Assembly (NCBI GenBank): GCA_937889595.1
Contig: CALAOR010000088.1
Coordinates: forward strand, 62,001 to 126,000
Direction: 5' to 3'
Source: an uncultured bacterium
GTDB taxonomy: Bacteria > Oederibacteriota > PGYV01 > Palsa-1178
DNA length: 64,000 nucleotides
The position numbers and the translations under genes are program-made. Below the pieces are notes generated by a model. The model was given only the letters and a program-made list of their open reading frames with translations, did no database searches and was not told the DNA's origin. Below, one piece after another: positions 13,762 to 55,005 of the stretch. Numbering within the stretch: position 1 is the first letter of the stretch; each line of letters begins with the position of its first letter.

Positions 13762-13793
13762 GATTGTATTTAGATTATTGTACGAAATCGTTC

Positions 13794-13995
13794 GCGGACA
13801 TCCGCCGTCCAAAATTATCATGCAGGCAGGCTTTAGTCCTGCGCTACCGATAGGTGACCTCTTTCAATTATTTTGTGATAATTAATTACCCATATGATGC
13901 CGTTTAAAACCATACCCTCTTTGTCTTAACCAGTTTTTTCGTAGTCGCACCCTCTACGCTTCACCGGGGTGCGCTTGCGGGCATTAAAAGTTGTT
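13794..13995 (+). repeat. Dispersed intergenic repeat modules A (13794-13856) and B (13922-13995)
   Basis: Both modules recur in the same orientation but opposite order at 25154-25294. Module B contains inverted CGCACCC/GGGTGCG and module A contains a GCAGG...CCTGC stem, so each could fold as a REP-like hairpin. They occupy most of the 330-base gap between the MNT gene and the next gene. No coding function is seen. Confidence 0.75.
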
Positions 13996-22178: not shown

Positions 22179-22291
22179 GACACGATCTATCATTAAGGCC
22201 ATGTACCATCATGTACCATCATGTACCATTCGCAGTAGCTCAGGTACATGACACGGTTCGCAGTAGCTCAGGTACATGGCATGCTTTTCCG
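22179..22291 (+). repeat. Left inverted compound repeat (2 x 28 bp, 3 x 10 bp units)
   Basis: From GACAC to GCATGCTTTTCCG this 113-bp stretch holds three 10-mers (GTACCATCAT type) and two copies of a 28-bp unit containing GTAGCTCAGGTACATG. It is the reverse complement of 24944-25102, apart from unit copy number and a few substitutions. Confidence 0.92.
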
Positions 22292-22310
22292 ACAATATCT
22301 CTTTTATAAC

Positions 22311-22341
22311 AAAAAGGGCCGGCATCAAGCCGGCCCTTTTT
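22311..22341 (-). terminator. Strong intrinsic terminator of the PQQ-protein gene
   Basis: Thirteen-base arms (AAAAAGGGCCGGC and complement) around a five-base loop, with A/T runs on both sides, 13 bases after the stop of the leftward gene. It could also act on rightward transcription. Confidence 0.9.
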
Positions 22342-22353
22342 AATCCGCGCGCT

Positions 22354-24399
22354 TTATCTGATAACGCTTACTTTTTCTTTGGCCGTATAGTAATCACACT
22401 TTACGGTCACAATATATATCCCGCTGGCCACTTTTTGTCCCTGTTCATTTGTGCCGTCCCAGTAAACATAATACTCTCCGGCCTGCTTTGCCTCATTTGA
22501 AAGTAAAGTCTTAACCAGGGCGCCTGCCTTTGAATATACTTTTATCTCCAGCGTATCTCCGGCGTAGACTTTATAGTGGACCGTCGCGCGTTCGTTTAAG
22601 TCCGGGTTAAACACGTTCTTGAATATCTTCACATCCTGCCCCGGGATTGTTTCCTTATCAAAATCGCCGTTGCTTATACCCACGATCCCGCATAGATCCG
22701 TTCCCTTAACAACAATTTTGTCAATATCCCCGAATCCGGTCTGTTTGGGGTAAAGCACCCTGTACTTCATCGTTTCCGCGGGAATCAATACTGATTCAAA
22801 TTCAAGGACAGGCTTATTGGCACATATTCCGTGCGGATAGACCGTGATATGCGGCGGTGCGGTGAGCATGACATTGCTTGTTATCTCAAAAATAATATTA
22901 TTGGAATTCTCGGGGTCAAGGATCATCTTAACTGTAAATTTCGGAGGATTTATCCCGTCGCACGCTGTGGCTGTAAAAGTAGGCGAAGGAGTCGGGCTAA
23001 AACTGGCGGTTGACGTAATGGTCGGTGTTGCTGTGGCGGTAAAACTCGGGGTAAAGGTTGGTGAGGGGGTCTGCGTGTCTGTCGGAACCTCCGTTGATGT
23101 GCCCGTTGCCGTCTGTGTCGCTGTCTGTGTAACGGTAAATGTCGGCGTCACTGTAAAAGTCTGCGTGAAAGTCGGGGTCATGGTCGCTGAAAAAGTCCCG
23201 GTATAAGTTGGTGAAGGTGTGATTTTTGCCCCGTCACATGAACAAGGGCATGCTGCTTCACATTTCCCCACCGCGTACAGGTATCCGTCATTTGAAGTAA
23301 AAAGCAGGGTTCCGTTTGAGTATGAAATACTTGTAAAATTGGAGCCCTGGGTATTGCATGTGTAGTCCCAGCTGCCGGTATTCGCGTCCAGCGTCACCAG
23401 TTTATTCACGCATCCCAGGATGAAAACCCTGGCGCAAATCACTATGCATGACATCTTTGCAAAATTATCGCCGGTAAATGCACTTTTCCATTTTAAAATT
23501 CCCGTGACTGTATCAACCGCGTAAACCATCCTGTCATCGGATCCTATATAATAAACTCCGTTAGACAGGGCGCCTCCGCTGTTTGTCCAGCTCGTGGTAA
23601 GATATGTCCACATAACCGCGCCTGTTGCCTTGTTTAACCTGTATATTTTTCCCAGGCTTGACGCAAAATACACGCCGTTTGTATCCACTGACGCGGGCCC
23701 TAAAAGAGGGCATGTTATATAGCTTTTCCATTTCAGAGCCCCGGTAGTGCTGTTTACAGCGTAGAAATAACCGTCGTTTGAACCGACATAAAGAGTACCG
23801 TCCGTGTCAATCGCGGGCGACGCCACTATAATATCTGATGCCACCTGGAACTGGTTTTCCACATAACCCGTTGCCGAATCCAGTTTTATTATTTTTCCGG
23901 CCCTCGTCCCGATATATATTTTACCGTTTGCCAGGACAGGCGCCGGATCATTTACGTAATAATTCATAAGGTCGCTTGACATATTTGTGGCATAGGTCAT
24001 GCCGGGTATTATCTGTGTCCAAAGCAGGTTCCCTGTATTCCTGTCATAGGCATAAAATGTATAGGCATCATTTATGATTATCCTTGTGCCGTCAATCATA
24101 GGGGATGTATTGCTGTAACTGGCATATTTGGACCAGATCACCTGGCCCGATAATATCCCTACTTTCTGCAGCCTGCCTCCGCCTATGATATAGGTATAAC
24201 CTTCATCATCCGCGACCGGCACTGCGCCGTGCGTTGTAGAGCCTATATACGCCCTCCACTTAATGCAAAGAGGAAGGTCGATTGCCACATCGCACTCCCA
24301 GCCGCTATGACGCTCGTCTTTCTGATACTGTTTCCAGTCCGCAAACGCCGGCGGCGCCATGATTACGAGGCCAAGCATCAGGACAATGATTTTTTTCAT
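22354..24399 (-). CDS. Secreted PQQ-type beta-propeller protein with T/P linker and FlgD-like C-terminus
   Basis: 681 residues. A signal peptide ends at A-F-A-D. Residues ~25-385 contain repeated propeller blades (Y-V-G-S-N-D-G-Y-F-Y-A-V, then G-A-L-K-W-K-S). A Cys-rich hinge (C-P-C-S-C-D-G) leads to a Thr/Pro linker (~395-475), then a beta domain and a FlgD-like immunoglobulin module ending in K-V-S-V-I-R. The last module resembles sorting domains of type IX-like secreted proteins and occurs in three other large proteins here. Ligand unknown. It lies one base after the 150-residue gene, inside the inverted-repeat-flanked unit. Confidence 0.85.
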   Translation of the reverse strand: MKKIIVLMLGLVIMAPPAFADWKQYQKDERHSGWECDVAIDLPLCIKWRAYIGSTTHGAVPVADDEGYTYIIGGGRLQKVGILSGQVIWSKYASYSNTSPMIDGTRIIINDAYTFYAYDRNTGNLLWTQIIPGMTYATNMSSDLMNYYVNDPAPVLANGKIYIGTRAGKIIKLDSATGYVENQFQVASDIIVASPAIDTDGTLYVGSNDGYFYAVNSTTGALKWKSYITCPLLGPASVDTNGVYFASSLGKIYRLNKATGAVMWTYLTTSWTNSGGALSNGVYYIGSDDRMVYAVDTVTGILKWKSAFTGDNFAKMSCIVICARVFILGCVNKLVTLDANTGSWDYTCNTQGSNFTSISYSNGTLLFTSNDGYLYAVGKCEAACPCSCDGAKITPSPTYTGTFSATMTPTFTQTFTVTPTFTVTQTATQTATGTSTEVPTDTQTPSPTFTPSFTATATPTITSTASFSPTPSPTFTATACDGINPPKFTVKMILDPENSNNIIFEITSNVMLTAPPHITVYPHGICANKPVLEFESVLIPAETMKYRVLYPKQTGFGDIDKIVVKGTDLCGIVGISNGDFDKETIPGQDVKIFKNVFNPDLNERATVHYKVYAGDTLEIKVYSKAGALVKTLLSNEAKQAGEYYVYWDGTNEQGQKVASGIYIVTVKCDYYTAKEKVSVIR

Positions 24400-24400
24400 A

Positions 24401-24853
24401 TCAGCGCCCCCCTTTACTGCTGTAGGTAATATCGGCTTCCTGTTCTTTGCCTGATGTCATGGGGAATTTGATGTTGTTTGCGGCAATAGCAGCCTCAAAC
24501 TTGTCCGCGATTGCTGCGTAATCAAGGCCTAAAGCTTTGCACATATCGCCCCAGCATTTTCCTTCAGAACGCATCTTTATCAGGTCTGCCACAGGAACAG
24601 CCGCCTCCCTCGCTATAAACAACATCATCATGGAGAAAAATGAGCTGTAACCGGCGTCCTTTACAGCCTTAATATCGGTTTTTTTGAATTTTATTTTTGA
24701 TTCCATGTTCCCGTAAAAATTGTCCCTTTTGACTTTTGCATCTTTCTGCGCTAAAACAGCGTCATCCCCTTTTTTGTGGTCATCATTGGCGTAAACCGGC
24801 AATCCAAGCAATAAAGCCGAAAAAACAGTTAGAATTAGAATTTTGATTTTCAT
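24401..24853 (-). CDS. Small secreted protein, unknown
   Basis: 150 residues with a signal peptide ending at V-Y-A-N-D. The mature part is charged, then helical (F-S-M-M-M-L-F-I-A-R-E-A), and contains R-S-E-G-K-C-W-G-D-M-C-K-A-L-G-L. This G-K-x-W-G-D-x-x-K-x-L-G pattern recurs in small secreted proteins of several candidate phyla, without a known role. GGAGGG precedes the ATG. It is co-transcribed with the PQQ protein, whose gene starts one base after its stop, so the two probably work together at the cell surface. Confidence 0.72.
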   Translation of the reverse strand: MKIKILILTVFSALLLGLPVYANDDHKKGDDAVLAQKDAKVKRDNFYGNMESKIKFKKTDIKAVKDAGYSSFFSMMMLFIAREAAVPVADLIKMRSEGKCWGDMCKALGLDYAAIADKFEAAIAANNIKFPMTSGKEQEADITYSSKGGR

Positions 24854-24943
24854 TGTACCCTCCCTTGTTTGTTCTTATCTATCTGACATAATACGGCCAA
24901 ATAAAGTTCCATAAATATTACAAGATAAATTAAATGATGGCGG

Positions 24944-25102
24944 CGGAAAAGCATGCCATGTACCTGAGCTACTGCGAACCGTGTCATGTACCTGAGCTAC
25001 TGCGAACCGTGTCATGTACCTGAGCTAATGCGAACCGTGTCATGTACCTGAGCTACTGCGAATGGTACATGGTGGTACATGGCCTTAATGATAGGTTGTG
25101 TC
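24944..25102 (-). repeat. Right inverted compound repeat (4 x 28 bp, 2 x 10 bp units)
   Basis: Reverse-complement counterpart of 22179-22291, with the same outer ends (CGGAAAAGCATGC inside and GGCCTTAATGATAG outside) but four 28-bp units and two 10-mers. Length differs by exactly 46 bases as unit counts predict. The pair brackets a 2.65-kb, two-gene segment. Confidence 0.92.
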
Positions 25103-25153
25103 CGCCGCAGGCCTATTTTATGAACCGCAGCCCTGCGACTAAAAAGACTTTTT

Positions 25154-25294
25154 TGTGTCAACCAGTTTTTTCGTACTCGTACCCTCTCGCTTCATCGGGG
25201 TGCGCTTGATGGTATTAAAAGTTGTTGATTAGCGTACATCCGCCGTCCAAAATTATTATGCAGGCAAGCTTAAGTCCTACGCTGCCGATGGGTG
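25154..25294 (+). repeat. Second copy of intergenic modules B and A
   Basis: Module B at 25154-25225 and module A at 25232-25294 match 13922-13995 and 13794-13856 with about 85 percent identity by eye, in swapped order. The rest of the 580-base gap 24854-25434 holds the right compound repeat and no gene. Confidence 0.75.
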
Positions 25295-25434
25295 GCAGAA
25301 ACCGGATTATTCCGGGTTTCTATATATAAAAAAATGGACGGCCGAATAAGATTAACAGATGGTTTGGAACCGCTGACGTGATACGTGTATTTATTATTGA
25401 CAATCACTTAAATGGCTGACATGCTCTGCCCTAT

Positions 25435-25875
25435 TCAAGTCTTTTTTCTTACAATCCACTCCTCGTTTTCTGCAGCATTCGTGTTTTTAAAAAAATCAAT
25501 ATTCCTATCCCTCAAAACCCACATCATTTTTTCCAAAAAAACCGAGGCATCCTCTGGCGATATCAGAATTTCAAACTTGTAGAATGTTGACGTTTTTAAA
25601 AAAATAGGTTTCTTCCAAATTGAATATCTTAAATTAATCGCAACACGAGAAAGAGCCTTAAAAGCAGTATAAACTCCAAACGAAGTCAACTCATTAAAAT
25701 GGATTTTAATTAAAGTGAGTTTTTCAATAAATAGAGATACCTTAATGTCATTATCGCTAATTGTATAAATTAATACATGCTTGCCTAAATAATGAATTGC
25801 AATAAAACCCATCAAAACAAATAGCGGAAAAGGTAAAAAAATAAGAAAATTCAACAACGAATTTAATATATTCAC
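25435..25875 (-). CDS. Small membrane protein, candidate orphan immunity protein
   Basis: 146 residues from GTG 25875, whose G-T-G-A overlaps the stop of an RHS-like tail remnant; a TTG one codon earlier is an alternative. Two hydrophobic segments (~8-26 and possibly ~29-40) are followed by a cytoplasmic or periplasmic domain with no recognised motif. Strongly AT-rich codon use. Coupling to the RHS remnant is the typical arrangement of toxin-immunity pairs, so I infer a leftover immunity gene. Confidence 0.55.
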   Translation of the reverse strand: MNILNSLLNFLIFLPFPLFVLMGFIAIHYLGKHVLIYTISDNDIKVSLFIEKLTLIKIHFNELTSFGVYTAFKALSRVAINLRYSIWKKPIFLKTSTFYKFEILISPEDASVFLEKMMWVLRDRNIDFFKNTNAAENEEWIVRKKT

Positions 25876-25964
25876 CAACTTACCCCCGCGCCAAAAGTAT
25901 ATGTCCCGTATTTCCTCGCCCCCACCGACAATCCCGCTGAAAGTCCCAGTTCAATTTCATTCAA
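25872..25964 (-). pseudogene. RHS/surface-protein tail remnant
   Basis: A 30-codon open frame reads L-N-E-I-E-L-G-L-S-A-G-L-S-V-G-A-R-K-Y-G, then T-Y-T-F-G-A-G-V-S-W and stops. It is GC-rich unlike its AT-rich neighbours, overlaps the 3' end of the gene upstream and couples by four bases to the gene downstream. It looks like the final strands of a larger RHS-type or barrel protein left behind by recombination. Confidence 0.45.
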
Positions 25965-26587
25965 CTATGCAACAATTTTTTGATCTTGATTATTTTTCCC
26001 GTTGATCTTTCAATTACATTAATCTTTCGTTCCATTACAATTTTATCGAGAATCGCCATCAGTTCCGTTTCTTTACCTAGATTAAAAAAAGTTAAAATTT
26101 TTCCACTAAAACTCTCACCAATGGAATCAAAGCCAGTTCCTTTATATAAGTCATTAAAAAAATCTAATTTTTTAAAATAAACAGTAAAAGTACCGTCAGA
26201 ATTGCACTGAATTACAATATTTTCAACCTCGTTTAGATTCATAAAGAACACTCTATTTTTACCTATTTTAATAGATTCAATCAATCGCTTGTCTGTAATA
26301 AAGTAAGTTATATTTTTTCTTACAATATACGCAAGTTGATGACGGCCAATCAATTGGTAATATGGCACTATACAAAACAAGCATATGTAAAAAATATCAA
26401 CAACTAATTCATTTTTGTTAATCTCGGAGATATTGTAAAAATCAAAAAGCACTTTTATTCCATACATGTTAATTATAATCATCACTATTCCAACCGCATT
26501 CAAAAACCATTCAATCTCATTAAATAGCACAAAGGTTTTAGGACAACCTTTCCATAGAAGCTTTTCATCACGCATTAAAATTTTCAT
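25961..26587 (-). CDS. Membrane protein with PH-like domain, candidate immunity protein
   Basis: 208 residues. W-K-G-C-P-K-T at the N-terminus, two transmembrane helices (~27-50 and ~65-85) and I-T-D-K-R-L-I-E-S-I followed by V-F-F-M-N-L-N-E-V-E-N-I match the bacterial PH (bPH/YdbT-like) pattern, where a membrane hairpin precedes a PH fold. AT-rich. The 14 in-frame codons before the ATG, ending K-D-R-T-A-S-I, resemble the tail of the RHS-Tlde1 protein (K-D-R-T-V-K-K-K), suggesting it was once coupled to a similar toxin. Confidence 0.6.
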   Translation of the reverse strand: MKILMRDEKLLWKGCPKTFVLFNEIEWFLNAVGIVMIIINMYGIKVLFDFYNISEINKNELVVDIFYICLFCIVPYYQLIGRHQLAYIVRKNITYFITDKRLIESIKIGKNRVFFMNLNEVENIVIQCNSDGTFTVYFKKLDFFNDLYKGTGFDSIGESFSGKILTFFNLGKETELMAILDKIVMERKINVIERSTGKIIKIKKLLHS

Positions 26588-26695
26588 AATACTTGCCGTC
26601 CTATCTTTTATATTTTTCGTTATTGCACTTGCAAATTATCCACGTCACCTTTGCATAAATTTAGTACCTTCTCGCCGTACTTCCAGACATTCAGA

Positions 26696-27022
26696 TTATC
26701 TAGCATGATTCATTTGAAAAGCTGCCCCTCCAATTGTTAATATAAAATAACATGGGAGCGAACCAAAATATGGCTCGTTAGTTGTGCCTTGTATAAGCCA
26801 AGCAAAAAGAAAAAATCTAATTTTGTATGGTTTTATATCATCTCGTCCACCGGGATTATATCCGTTATCTTTTGCAAGCTGACGTTCAAAAATTCTAACT
26901 GCTCTATCTTCATTAATAAATAATCCTTCTTGAATATAATAATTATGTGAGATTCCAGAATATATTAAAAAAACCAGTATACACAATGTGAATCCAAGTA
27001 ACGCTTTATTTCTTTTGAGCAT
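26696..27022 (-). CDS. Small membrane-anchored protein, unknown
   Basis: 108 residues. An N-terminal hydrophobic helix (L-L-G-F-T-L-C-I-L-V-F-L-I) anchors a short soluble part with G-Y-N-P-G-G-R-D-D, and a second hydrophobic stretch lies near the C-terminus. AT-rich, no family recognised. Between it and the next gene leftward (26588-26695) a 28-codon frame reads M-L-D-N-L-N-V-W-K-Y-G-E-K-V, possibly another toxin-tail remnant. Part of the candidate immunity array. Confidence 0.5.
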   Translation of the reverse strand: MLKRNKALLGFTLCILVFLIYSGISHNYYIQEGLFINEDRAVRIFERQLAKDNGYNPGGRDDIKPYKIRFFLFAWLIQGTTNEPYFGSLPCYFILTIGGAAFQMNHAR

Positions 27023-27077
27023 CTTTTCACTCCTCGCCTTCTAACCTATATCGCCACCAAGTTTTCCACCGATAGTA

Positions 27078-27332
27078 TCATTCATCCATTTTTTTCAAAT
27101 CAAACACATAATCAATAAAAATAAAAAAAATAAAAGAAATAGCGCTTGACATCAACGAATAAAAAATATCTTTAAATATTTTCACGCTAATTTCAAAATC
27201 TTTAGACACAAACAACGATAATGAAAACACAAAAATAATAATAGTTTTTTTAAAACTGCTCATTATTGCTTTTTTTATGAACGAATATTTCTTTTCTGCT
27301 TTTTTTTGATCTAGATTGTTCATTGTATTCAC
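27078..27332 (-). CDS. Very small two-helix membrane protein
   Basis: 84 residues with two hydrophobic helices (~30-45, I-I-I-F-V-F-S-L-S-L-F-V and ~60-76, S-S-A-I-S-F-I-F-F-I-F-I) between charged ends. AGGAG lies upstream of the ATG. No family recognised; AT-rich. Such hairpin proteins are common immunity proteins or inhibitors, but nothing in the sequence proves it. Confidence 0.5.
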   Translation of the reverse strand: MNTMNNLDQKKAEKKYSFIKKAIMSSFKKTIIIFVFSLSLFVSKDFEISVKIFKDIFYSLMSSAISFIFFIFIDYVFDLKKMDE

Positions 27333-27343
27333 TCCTTCTTATA

Positions 27344-27398
27344 AGCAACTTTATTTGAAATCAACTGCATTTTCGACCTCTAGCACCTTTTCGTTTTT
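27344..27398. repeat. Second copy of the dispersed repeat at 14459-14512
   Basis: Shares AACTTTAT.TG.AATCAACT...TTTCGA..TC....CCTTTTC with the copy at 14.46 kb, in the same orientation and in a comparable place between accessory genes. Confidence 0.58.
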
Positions 27399-27399
27399 T

Positions 27400-27918
27400 T
27401 TATTTTATTATTGATATTTTTATTTCGTTTGATTTTACAGAGCCATTCCAACAATCCTTTATATTATTGCTTTCGCCAAAATAAGCATCGTCGCTATTAC
27501 TAACGTCATAAAAACCCCTTATTGAATAACTGCCACAACAATCAAAATCATAAAAGCTTGTTAAATCAATTTTCTTACCAAAAAAATTTTCCGATTGTAG
27601 CATAAAACTTTCTTTTGGCACAAAGCCCCATGGTACAAATCTTTGTTTTTCAGAAACCAGTTCATTTTTTTCGTTTCTTACTTCTATTCCTAAAAACTTA
27701 TATTTGACAATGAATCCGTTAGGAATTCTAATGTCATTGTTGCCAACATTGCAAATACTAATATTTAGGAACACTTTTTCATTTATTTTAAAGATATCTT
27801 TATCCGTTGCTATATGTAAACTGATTGTGTCTTCGTCATTCGATTTTGCGCAACAAAAACAACTTGCAAAAGAAAGTAAAGAAATAACTAAAATCACAAT
27901 GTATAGTCTTTTTTTCAT
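27400..27918 (-). CDS. Lipoprotein with immunoglobulin-like domain, candidate immunity protein
   Basis: 172 residues. The signal peptide ends in a lipobox F-A-S-C followed by F-C-C, so the protein is probably lipid-anchored. The mature part (I-S-L-H-I-A-T-D-K-D-I-F-K-I-N-E-K-V, then L-N-I-S-I-C-N-V-G-N-N-D-I) has the strand pattern of a BsuPI/Ig-like domain. AT-rich. Its ribosome site GGAGG is inside the end of the upstream toxin-like frame, so the two are coupled, as expected for toxin and periplasmic immunity lipoprotein. Confidence 0.65.
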   Translation of the reverse strand: MKKRLYIVILVISLLSFASCFCCAKSNDEDTISLHIATDKDIFKINEKVFLNISICNVGNNDIRIPNGFIVKYKFLGIEVRNEKNELVSEKQRFVPWGFVPKESFMLQSENFFGKKIDLTSFYDFDCCGSYSIRGFYDVSNSDDAYFGESNNIKDCWNGSVKSNEIKISIIK

Positions 27919-27919
27919 A

Positions 27920-28188
27920 TCAACCTCCCTGTTTTTTACCTTTAAATTTTTCTATGGTTTCTTTGAAGGCGCTGTCCGCTTTATCTATACCCTTATCCCC
28001 AATTGTTTTACGATTTGCCGTTTGCCCCTTGGTTTTAAATATACCTTTTCTACATTTATGTATTAGTTCTTGAATCCAATTGTTTGAATATTCGGAACTG
28101 TCGCAACGGCACAAAACTTTGGTTTTGAAATCGCCCCTTTATTATTTCCATCAGCAACTTTATTGCCTGCATTAATAACATCCGCGAC
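27920..28188 (-). pseudogene. Frameshifted RHS-like toxin tail
   Basis: Two frames together look like one lost protein. 28188 to about 28110 reads V-A-D-V-I-N-A-G-N-K-V-A-D-G-N, similar to the post-core segment of RHS/polymorphic toxins (A-D-x-x-N-A-G-x-x-x-A-x-G-N). The adjoining frame from about 28114 continues S-N-N-W-I-Q-E-L-I-H-K-C-R-K to K-G-K-K-Q-G-G and stops at 27920, two bases before the lipoprotein gene. Toxin family not recognised. The 5' edge is a stop codon beside a palindromic repeat. Confidence 0.42.
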
Positions 28189-28216
28189 TCAATCTGCCGA
28201 ATCAAATGCCTGCGGC

Positions 28217-28238
28217 GGGCGGACACATAGGTCCGCCC
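28217..28238. repeat. Intergenic palindrome GGGCGGAC..GTCCGCCC
   Basis: Eight-base arms around ACATAG, followed by CCTAC. It belongs to the TAGGGGCGGACC...TGTCCGCCC type of small mobile palindromes found between genes in many bacteria; relatives are at 42782-42854. Confidence 0.7.
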
Positions 28239-28270
28239 CTACATGAAATTATAATTGATAATCCGGTTAA

Positions 28271-42737: not shown

Positions 42738-42781
42738 TAATTAAATGATACTGCCTGAAAACCCTTAAAAACCATCGTTGT

Positions 42782-42854
42782 GGGCCGAATAATATTCGGC
42801 CCCTACAAATATCTGTCTGCACTTGTAGGGGCAGCATATCATGCTGCCCGCCCC
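42782..42854. repeat. Pair of TAGGGGC-type intergenic palindromes
   Basis: 42782-42802 is GGGCCGAATA, A, complement. 42828-42854 is GGGGCAGCAT..ATGCTGC..GCCCC. Both adjoin a CCCCTAC or GTAGGGG end, the signature of the same small-palindrome family as 28217-28238. Confidence 0.72.
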
Positions 42855-43000
42855 TTGCGGATTTTTCCGACCGCTTCCAAATATCATCCCAACACATGTC
42901 CAATAGAATACCACACGTTTGACTTGCTTTTTTTGTGTATAATCAGAGCATCCAATACCCTTCTACTATCTACTCTCTACTATCTCAAGCCCTTGATCTC

Positions 43001-54686: not shown

Positions 54687-54778
54687 CTGAGCAGATTGAA
54701 CAGGTGAGCAGTTTGACCGCAGGTTCGCCGTTGCCTTGATTGTCAACCTGCTCAACTGTTCAATCTGTTCACCTGCTC
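54687..54778. repeat. Word-like GAGCAG/GAACAG/ATTGA repeat, 3' side of tRNA-Lys
   Basis: Left half of a large repeat zone. Words GAGCAG, GAACAG, GTTGA and ATTGA appear on one arm, and their complements on the other, making an imperfect inverted repeat of about 40 bases per arm. Confidence 0.75.
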
Positions 54779-54779
54779 T

Positions 54780-54804
54780 GAAATTTTCGCGAAGCGAAAA
54801 TTTC
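54780..54804 (-). terminator. Hairpin directly after tRNA-Lys
   Basis: Arms GAAATTTTCGC and complement with a GAA loop, touching the tRNA CCA end. It may act as processing signal or terminator; no T-run follows. Confidence 0.6.
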
Positions 54805-54880
54805 TGGTGAGCCGGGCGAGAGTCGAACTCGCGACGCCCGCCTTAAAAGGGCGGTGCTCTACCAACTGAGCTACCGGCCC
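54805..54880 (-). tRNA. tRNA-Lys (anticodon TTT)
   Basis: 76 nt on the minus strand including an encoded CCA. The acceptor GGGCCGG pairs with CCGGCTC (one G-U). D arm GCTC..GAGC, anticodon stem CCGCC/GGCGG with loop CTTTTAA, T arm with GTTCGACTC loop. Anticodon TTT reads lysine codons AAA and AAG, abundant in these proteins. It is the only tRNA found and is framed by two AT-rich hairpins. Confidence 0.95.
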
Positions 54881-54884
54881 ACCT

Positions 54885-54911
54885 GTAAAATTTTGCCCAG
54901 CAAAATTTTAC
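54885..54911 (-). repeat. Hairpin directly before tRNA-Lys
   Basis: Arms GTAAAATTTTGC and complement with a CCA loop, five bases before the 5' end of the tRNA. Similar in size and AAATTTT content to the hairpin on the other side. Confidence 0.65.
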
Positions 54912-54912
54912 G

Positions 54913-55005
54913 GAGCAGATTGAGCAGGTTGAACAGTTGAGCAGGTTGACAACCCGGGCAAATGCTCAATCTGCGGTCAACCTGTTCAACCTGCTCAATC
55001 TGCTC
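54913..55005. repeat. 24-bp perfect inverted repeat of GAGCAG/ATTGA words, 5' side of tRNA-Lys
   Basis: Arms 54913-54936 and 54982-55005 are exact complements, with further partial pairing inside. Same words as 54687-54778. The rest of the gap up to 55255 is AT-rich without features. Confidence 0.85.

What the first reader, a model, noticed from the sequence alone, without database searches (positions are those of the whole stretch)
22179..25102. Two-gene segment bracketed by inverted compound tandem repeats with different copy numbers
Left (22179-22291) and right (24944-25102) flanks are reverse complements sharing both end sequences. The 28-bp unit is present 2x versus 4x, the 10-bp unit 3x versus 2x, and the length difference (46 bp) is fully explained by units. 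Between them lie a PQQ/FlgD surface protein gene and a small secreted protein gene, but no transposase. This looks like a non-autonomous mobile or invertible cassette, not a known IS.
Basis: seen in the sequence. Interest (0 to 1): 0.75.

Follow-up and report, generated by a model that had tools for sequence, protein, structure and literature searches.

The report
Nested mobile hairpins flanking two genes
The two inverted repeats are chance neighbours from a large family of tiny transposase-less mobile elements in an uncultured bacterium, and each carries a palindromic hairpin that has apparently inserted into copies of itself; the genes between them are not a mobile cassette, but the hairpin, which elsewhere sits exactly on tRNA ends, is of moderate interest.

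Summary
In detail: two inverted compound repeats at 22179-22299 (-) and 24936-25102 (+), with 28-bp units 2x/4x and 10-bp units 3x/2x. The cassette reading is not supported. Both flanks are 3'-truncated copies of a dispersed family (61 merged loci, 65 unit hits in the 3.42-Mb genome). Intact members are 51-313-bp MITEs with ~15-bp inverted ends (GATACTGTCGGAAAA) and 5-bp target duplications (18 of 52 pairs exact; 0.8 expected). Inside many MITEs sits a ~36-nt hairpin (here HP36). The arrays fit HP36 inserted into its own arm: each nesting adds one 28-bp and one 10-bp unit, and copies with 1+1, 2+2 and 3+3 units exist. The window copies (2+3, 4+2) then need later unit gain or loss. HP36 occurs in 20 of 45 genomes of the phylum, 0 of 34 outside. 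At 13 loci it overlaps exactly the NCCA end of a tRNA gene. In the congener G001 the site is empty, but the 6.03-kb difference starts at the left repeat's outer end and ends ~3.1 kb beyond the right repeat; a homologous gene pair sits elsewhere there without HP36. No driving transposase was found. Verdict: new variant of known kinds (MITE plus REP-like palindrome).

The parts
22179..22299 (-). Left repeat: 3'-truncated MITE copy holding a nested HP36 array (28-bp unit x2, 10-bp unit x3)
22285..22299 (-). 5' terminal inverted repeat of the left copy, GATATTGTCGGAAAA (1 mismatch to family consensus), facing the two genes
22218..22258 (-). Innermost HP36 hairpin of the left copy (covariance model R1, 56.6 bits)
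22179..22198 (-). Remnant of the left arm of the MITE's internal long palindrome; the rest of the palindrome and the 3' inverted repeat are missing. Its outer edge coincides with the indel edge against G001
24936..25120 (+). Right repeat: 3'-truncated MITE copy with nested HP36 array (28-bp unit x4, 10-bp unit x2) and part of the internal palindrome arm
24936..24950 (+). 5' terminal inverted repeat of the right copy, variant GATGGCGGCGGAAAA, facing the two genes
   Evidence: similar variants GATGGTGGCGGAAAA in L048, L063 and L128
25033..25073 (+). Innermost HP36 hairpin of the right copy (model R1, 56.9 bits)
22354..24399 (-). Gene for secreted PQQ-type beta-propeller/FlgD-Ig protein (681 aa); bystander
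24401..24853 (-). Gene for small secreted protein (150 aa); its homologue also sits beside a PQQ/FlgD gene in G001 and G003
22179..28207 (.). 6.03-kb block absent from the congener G001 between the FtsK and hydrolase genes; includes both repeats, the gene pair and an AT-rich island
42747..42877 (+). Another MITE copy of the same inverted-repeat family (131 bp, flanks TAAAT/CAAAT)

Best explanation
The bracketing repeats are two independent, truncated insertions of one MITE family that happen to lie in inverted orientation around an ordinary gene pair. The MITE moves by a cut-and-paste type transposase acting in trans on GATACTGTCGGAAAA ends and makes 5-bp target duplications (past mobility is shown by the duplications; the enzyme is inferred). 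Many MITEs have been invaded near their 5' end by a separate ~36-nt palindromic element, HP36. HP36 then inserts into copies of itself after ACCA in its own arm. Each such event adds one left-arm/loop/spacer (28 bp) and one right arm (10 bp), giving nested hairpins that look like compound tandem repeats. Later slippage or unequal recombination alters the two arrays independently, which would give 2+3 and 4+2 in the window (inferred). HP36 is most likely spread as single-stranded DNA by an IS200/IS605- or RAYT-like enzyme, by analogy with REPs (inferred only).
For: Family size: 65 unit hits in the genome, 0 with the reversed control pattern; 275 inverted-repeat hits against 95 control. 5-bp duplications: 18 of 52 exact, 0.77 expected, no excess at 2, 4 or 6-10 bp. 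MITEs with and without HP36 at two sites exist in the same genome. Array counts: (1,1) in 28 copies, (2,2) in 7, (3,3) in 1, and the inserted 38-mer fits between GCGAA and TGGTACATGG exactly; the 2+2 form folds as one hairpin inside another, z -4.95. The HP36 stem is supported by compensatory changes: 11 cells at 2 pairs, 0 of 500 shuffles as high, slid controls 0-1. HP36 lies outside these MITEs at tRNA ends and in CGTC-type repeats of relatives. Empty site.
Against: No transposase bearing these ends was found: the one DDE_Tnp_1 hit is an IS1182 with a similar but distinct end and 4-bp duplications, and the eight Y1 transposase hits carry no HP36. Both window copies have unequal unit numbers, so pure nesting does not explain them. 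Several contigs end inside such arrays, so copy numbers may be partly collapsed. HP36 insertion sites in MITEs and CGTC repeats (GC^TT) do not show the CCA target seen at tRNAs. Only one congener genome shows the empty site.
Confidence: 0.82

Rival explanations
1. Composite cassette: the two inverted MITE copies act together as ends and move the two-gene segment as a unit, as TIMEs do.
For: Inverted arrangement; the locus is empty in G001; the left indel edge is exactly the left repeat's outer end; TIMEs are reported to mobilise intervening DNA (PMC4133298).
Against: The right indel edge lies ~3.1 kb past the right repeat. Both copies have lost their outer inverted repeats. A homologous pair elsewhere in G001 and G003 lacks HP36 and the unit. 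Close pairs are no commoner than chance, and two others I noted have the opposite orientation (C10 and C64).
Confidence: 0.06
2. Invertible segment: recombination between the inverted copies flips the two genes to switch expression.
For: Inverted repeats of 63 identical nt could support homologous recombination.
Against: No recombinase gene between the copies, no alternative orientation seen, family dispersed genome-wide. Not tested with reads.
Confidence: 0.04
3. The arrays are plain minisatellites that grew by slippage from a single hairpin, with no nested insertion; 28-bp and 10-bp arrays vary independently.
For: Unequal counts (2,3), (3,2), (4,2), (2,5); BrickBuilt MITEs carry a minisatellite (PMC4596501).
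Against: Copies at 1+1 and 2+2 dominate the complete copies; the spacer CCGTG is absent from most single hairpins in MITEs; an equivalent unit occurs inside a different hairpin in L036.
Confidence: 0.2
4. Assembly artefact: repeat collapse in a draft assembly created the bracketed structure.
For: 93 contigs, several ending inside the arrays.
Against: Both window copies are internal to a 148-kb contig with different flanks, and family members with clean target duplications occur throughout.
Confidence: 0.03

Closest known systems
Bacterial MITEs, including TIMEs (Tn3-derived; PMC4133298)
   Same: Small, transposase-less, terminal inverted repeats, 5-bp target duplications in AT-rich sites
   Different: Inverted repeats ~15 bp, GATACTGTCGGAAAA, not the 38-bp Tn3 ends; no autonomous partner found; interiors are mosaics of palindromic modules
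BrickBuilt, a minisatellite inside a MITE of Porphyromonas gingivalis (PMC4596501)
   Same: Tandem short units inside a MITE with leader and tail
   Different: Here two unit types (28 and 10 bp) are coupled as the arms of nested hairpins
BOX elements of Streptococcus pneumoniae (PMC3049150)
   Same: Modular dispersed repeat with a variable number of internal modules
   Different: boxB is one tandem module; here the arrays are the two halves of a hairpin, and target duplications are seen
REP palindromes, GTAG and CGTC super-families (PMC3733652)
   Same: 20-40-nt palindromes with an unpaired tag, high copy, sometimes inserted inside longer palindromes; HP36 shares the GAGC-n-GCGA core seen in local CGTC-type repeats
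   Different: No GTAG or CGTC tag (CGTG/CATG/CTTG-like instead), longer stem, self-nesting, and exact placement on tRNA NCCA ends
IS1182-family insertion sequence in the same genome (L140)
   Same: Ends share GAG.CTGTC..AAAA with MITE end variants
   Different: 4-bp target duplication, four mismatches in the 15-nt end

Membership tests
MITE | Terminal inverted repeats | tested here: met
   GATACTGTCGGAAAA pairs, 52 found in the loci taken
MITE | Target-site duplications | tested here: met
   5 bp, 18 of 52 exact against 0.77 expected
MITE | No transposase gene, small size | tested here: met
   Paired elements with exact duplications span 51-313 bp
MITE | Autonomous partner with the same ends | tested here: inconclusive
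   Only DDE_Tnp_1 and Y1_Tnp were sought in the genome; none fits
TIME (Tn3-derived) | 38-bp Tn3-family inverted repeats | tested here: not met
   Inverted repeats ~15 bp and unlike GGGG-type Tn3 ends (Tn3 end from general knowledge)
REP (GTAG super-family) | Unpaired GTAG at one foot of the hairpin | tested here: not met
   HP36 alignment A1; true GTAG REPs exist separately in this genome
REP (CGTC super-family) | Unpaired CGTC tag, 8-9-bp stem, 4-5-nt loop, CCA tail | tested here: not met
   Tag CGTG/CATG/CTTG, 10-bp outer stem; definition from PMC3733652
RAYT-mobilised REP | RAYT gene flanked by the repeat | tested here: not met
   RAYT-like genes L145/L146 (NF047646 hit below the curated cut-off) are flanked by GTAG palindromes, with no HP36 in those loci
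Mobile gene cassette bounded by the repeats | Indel edges coincide with both repeats | tested here: not met
   Left edge yes, right edge ~3.1 kb beyond

The most novel reading that the evidence does not exclude
HP36 is a distinct class of self-nesting mobile hairpin, spread across a candidate phylum, that inserts 3' of NCCA. It uses tRNA 3' ends as safe sites (the tRNA's CCA is kept and a second GCCA closes the element), and re-inserts after ACCA in its own arm, so nested palindromes build up. It would work like a minimal IS200/IS605-type single-strand element mobilised in trans.
Probability: 0.25. Interest if true: 0.65.

Novelty: new variant of a known kind. Interest (0 to 1): 0.42.

Why it matters
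It shows a simple route by which bacterial compound tandem repeats can arise: a palindrome inserted into itself adds the two arms as separate arrays. The exact placement of a phylum-wide hairpin on tRNA CCA ends gives a testable case for how REP-like palindromes choose targets, and for whether CGTC-type REPs, which lack a known transposase (PMC3733652), share a mobilising enzyme with it.

Tried and rejected
IS1182 as the MITE driver: end similar but 4-bp duplications in three copies. An IS1182-like gene in G003 between GATAGTGTCGAAAAA and GATACCGTCGAAAAA (L173): no target duplication and it lies among other gene fragments; rejected as partner. L128, 1214 bp between inverted repeats with a near-match duplication: holds a 331-aa ORF that does not look like a transposase by eye (no profile search), not taken as autonomous. 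RAYT as the HP36 driver: flanked by a different REP. Rfam on the segment: only matches far below gathering scores. Exact HP36 pattern in GTDB contigs: only three stretches from one FCPU426 genome. Literature searches with tRNA terms gave no report of palindromic repeats at tRNA CCA ends (one search failed on syntax); the library is open-access only.

Full report
CHECK OF THE OBSERVATION. The sequence, repeat finders and a pattern scan with shuffles confirm the inverted compound repeats, the unit counts (28-bp unit 2 and 4 times, 10-bp unit 3 and 2 times) and the 46-bp length arithmetic. The copies extend a little further inward than stated (to 22299 and from 24936), because each starts with a terminal inverted repeat that points towards the genes.

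DISPERSED FAMILY. The 28-bp core occurs 65 times in the 3.42-Mb genome and the reversed control pattern 0 times. The end sequences add further loci, giving 61 merged loci as I counted them; not every weak end match was verified. Copies are often at contig ends, as expected of repeats that break an assembly. Read side by side, intact members show GATACTGTCGGAAAA at one end and TTTTCCGACAGTATC at the other, with a long palindrome between (GTCGTGTCCGG...CCGGACACGAT). Of 52 inverted-repeat pairs closer than 700 bp in the stretches taken, 18 are flanked by identical 5-mers, against 0.77 expected from mismatched pairs; no other length apart from a slight excess at 3 bp stands out. This is a MITE family. 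Both window copies are cut off inside the long palindrome and lack the 3' inverted repeat.

THE HAIRPIN INSIDE THE MITE. Many MITEs carry, just inside the 5' end, a hairpin NTGCCATGWACC-loop-GGTWCATGGC (here HP36); others lack it at the same place (L067, L085, L071, L066). A diverged copy in the opposite orientation sits at a second MITE site in 7 elements, and about 19 such sites are empty. Other copies lie in a CGTC-type repeat of the FCPU426 genome palsa_1178 and of G001 (GATTGC^TTCGTCG) and inside another hairpin (L036). The stem has compensatory changes at two pairs (T-A/A-T and T-A/C-G; 11 cells, 0 of 500 shuffles as high, slid controls 0-1). This set is small (14 sequences) and was picked by eye.

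HOW THE 28- AND 10-BP ARRAYS ARISE. Placing one 38-nt hairpin (CCGTGTCATGTACC...GGTACATGA) after GCGAA in a resident hairpin gives exactly two 28-bp and two 10-bp units. Complete copies show (1,1) 28 times, (2,2) 7 times including two at contig edges, (3,3) once, and unequal counts in the rest. The (2,2) form folds as a hairpin within a hairpin. Nesting followed by gain or loss of units is the simplest reading. The two window copies, (2,3) and (4,2), need that second step, so nesting is inferred for them, not shown.

NOT A CASSETTE. In the congener G001 the FtsK and hydrolase genes are adjacent, with the region around them syntenic at 72-83% nucleotide identity. Against that empty site the window has 6.03 kb extra. 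The left junction (GTAAAAAG|ACACGATC, about 22179) is exactly the outer end of the left repeat; the right junction (about 28207) lies next to a GTAG palindrome, ~3.1 kb past the right repeat. The block is itself composite: the gene pair has 41-49% GC, the stretch from about 25.5 to 28.0 kb only 28-33%. Polarity is unresolved because in G002 and G003 the two neighbours were not found together. A homologous gene pair (37-49% protein identity) lies elsewhere in G001 and G003 without HP36 or the unit. Close pairs of copies are no commoner than random placement gives (5 against 3.0, P = 0.19).

HP36 AND tRNA ENDS. A covariance model finds HP36 in 20 of 79 genomes: all 20 are among the 45 of the same phylum (as labelled by the tool), none among 34 outside. 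In the 65 loci inspected with tRNA prediction, 13 hairpins overlap exactly the last four bases (NCCA) of a tRNA gene, always in one orientation. In most of these the element closes with a second GCCA about 35 nt on. One such site is in the window's own genome (L262, tRNA-Glu). The 65 loci were drawn from the better-scoring hits, several are homologous between related genomes (tRNA-Glu in G000 and G001, tRNA-Val in three genomes), and ARAGORN places gene ends on CCA where it can, so 13 is not a count of independent events. An inherited tRNA trailer, from which mobile copies later arose, remains possible.

DRIVERS. The only DDE_Tnp_1 gene in the genome is an IS1182 with ends GAGTCTGTCTCAAAA and a 4-bp duplication. 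Other DDE families were not searched. The Y1_Tnp search gave eight hits; two near-identical 184-aa proteins resemble RAYTs (NF047646, below cut-off) and are flanked by GTAG palindromes. No HP36 lies near any Y1 hit. The enzymes that move the MITE and HP36 are therefore unknown.

COMPARISON. MITEs with tandem units (BrickBuilt, PMC4596501), modular BOX elements (PMC3049150), TIMEs (PMC4133298) and REPs inserted in longer palindromes (PMC3733652) are all known. I found no report of a palindrome that nests in itself to give coupled arm arrays, or of REP-like palindromes placed on tRNA CCA ends, but only an open-access library was searched with few queries. I rate this a new variant of known kinds.

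Noticed in passing
L196, L198, L199, L200, L203, L206, L208, L218, L231, L233, L235, L255, L262: HP36-type hairpins begin exactly at the NCCA end of tRNA genes (Asn, Val, Gln, Glu) and usually close with a second GCCA about 35 nt downstream.
   Followed up: partly
25435-28200: AT-rich island (28-33% GC against 40-50% around) with small ORFs of 84-208 aa, of which the two put to Pfam gave no hit above its curated cut-off; part of the 6-kb block absent from G001.
   Followed up: no
13791-13955 and 25152-25294: Another dispersed repeat: 66-nt and 36-nt stretches, 88-89% identical, in different order at the two places; the second lies just beyond the right MITE copy.
   Followed up: no
28214-28242: GTAG-type REP palindrome (GTAGGGGCGGAC...GTCCGCCC) at the right edge of the 6-kb indel; several GTAG REP families occur in the genome.
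   Followed up: partly
54694-54961: tRNA-Lys is followed by a different perfect hairpin (GAAATTTTCGCTTCGCGAAAATTTC) and by inverted and direct GAGCAGGTT-type repeats.
   Followed up: no
L145, L146: Two near-identical 184-aa RAYT-like transposase genes flanked by GTAG REPs, a probable REP-RAYT unit in this candidate phylum.
   Followed up: partly
L120:2364: Diverged HP36 with one stem mismatch inserted in GACGAAAGCC^...GGCAATC, a CGTC-type repeat context in the window's own genome.
   Followed up: no
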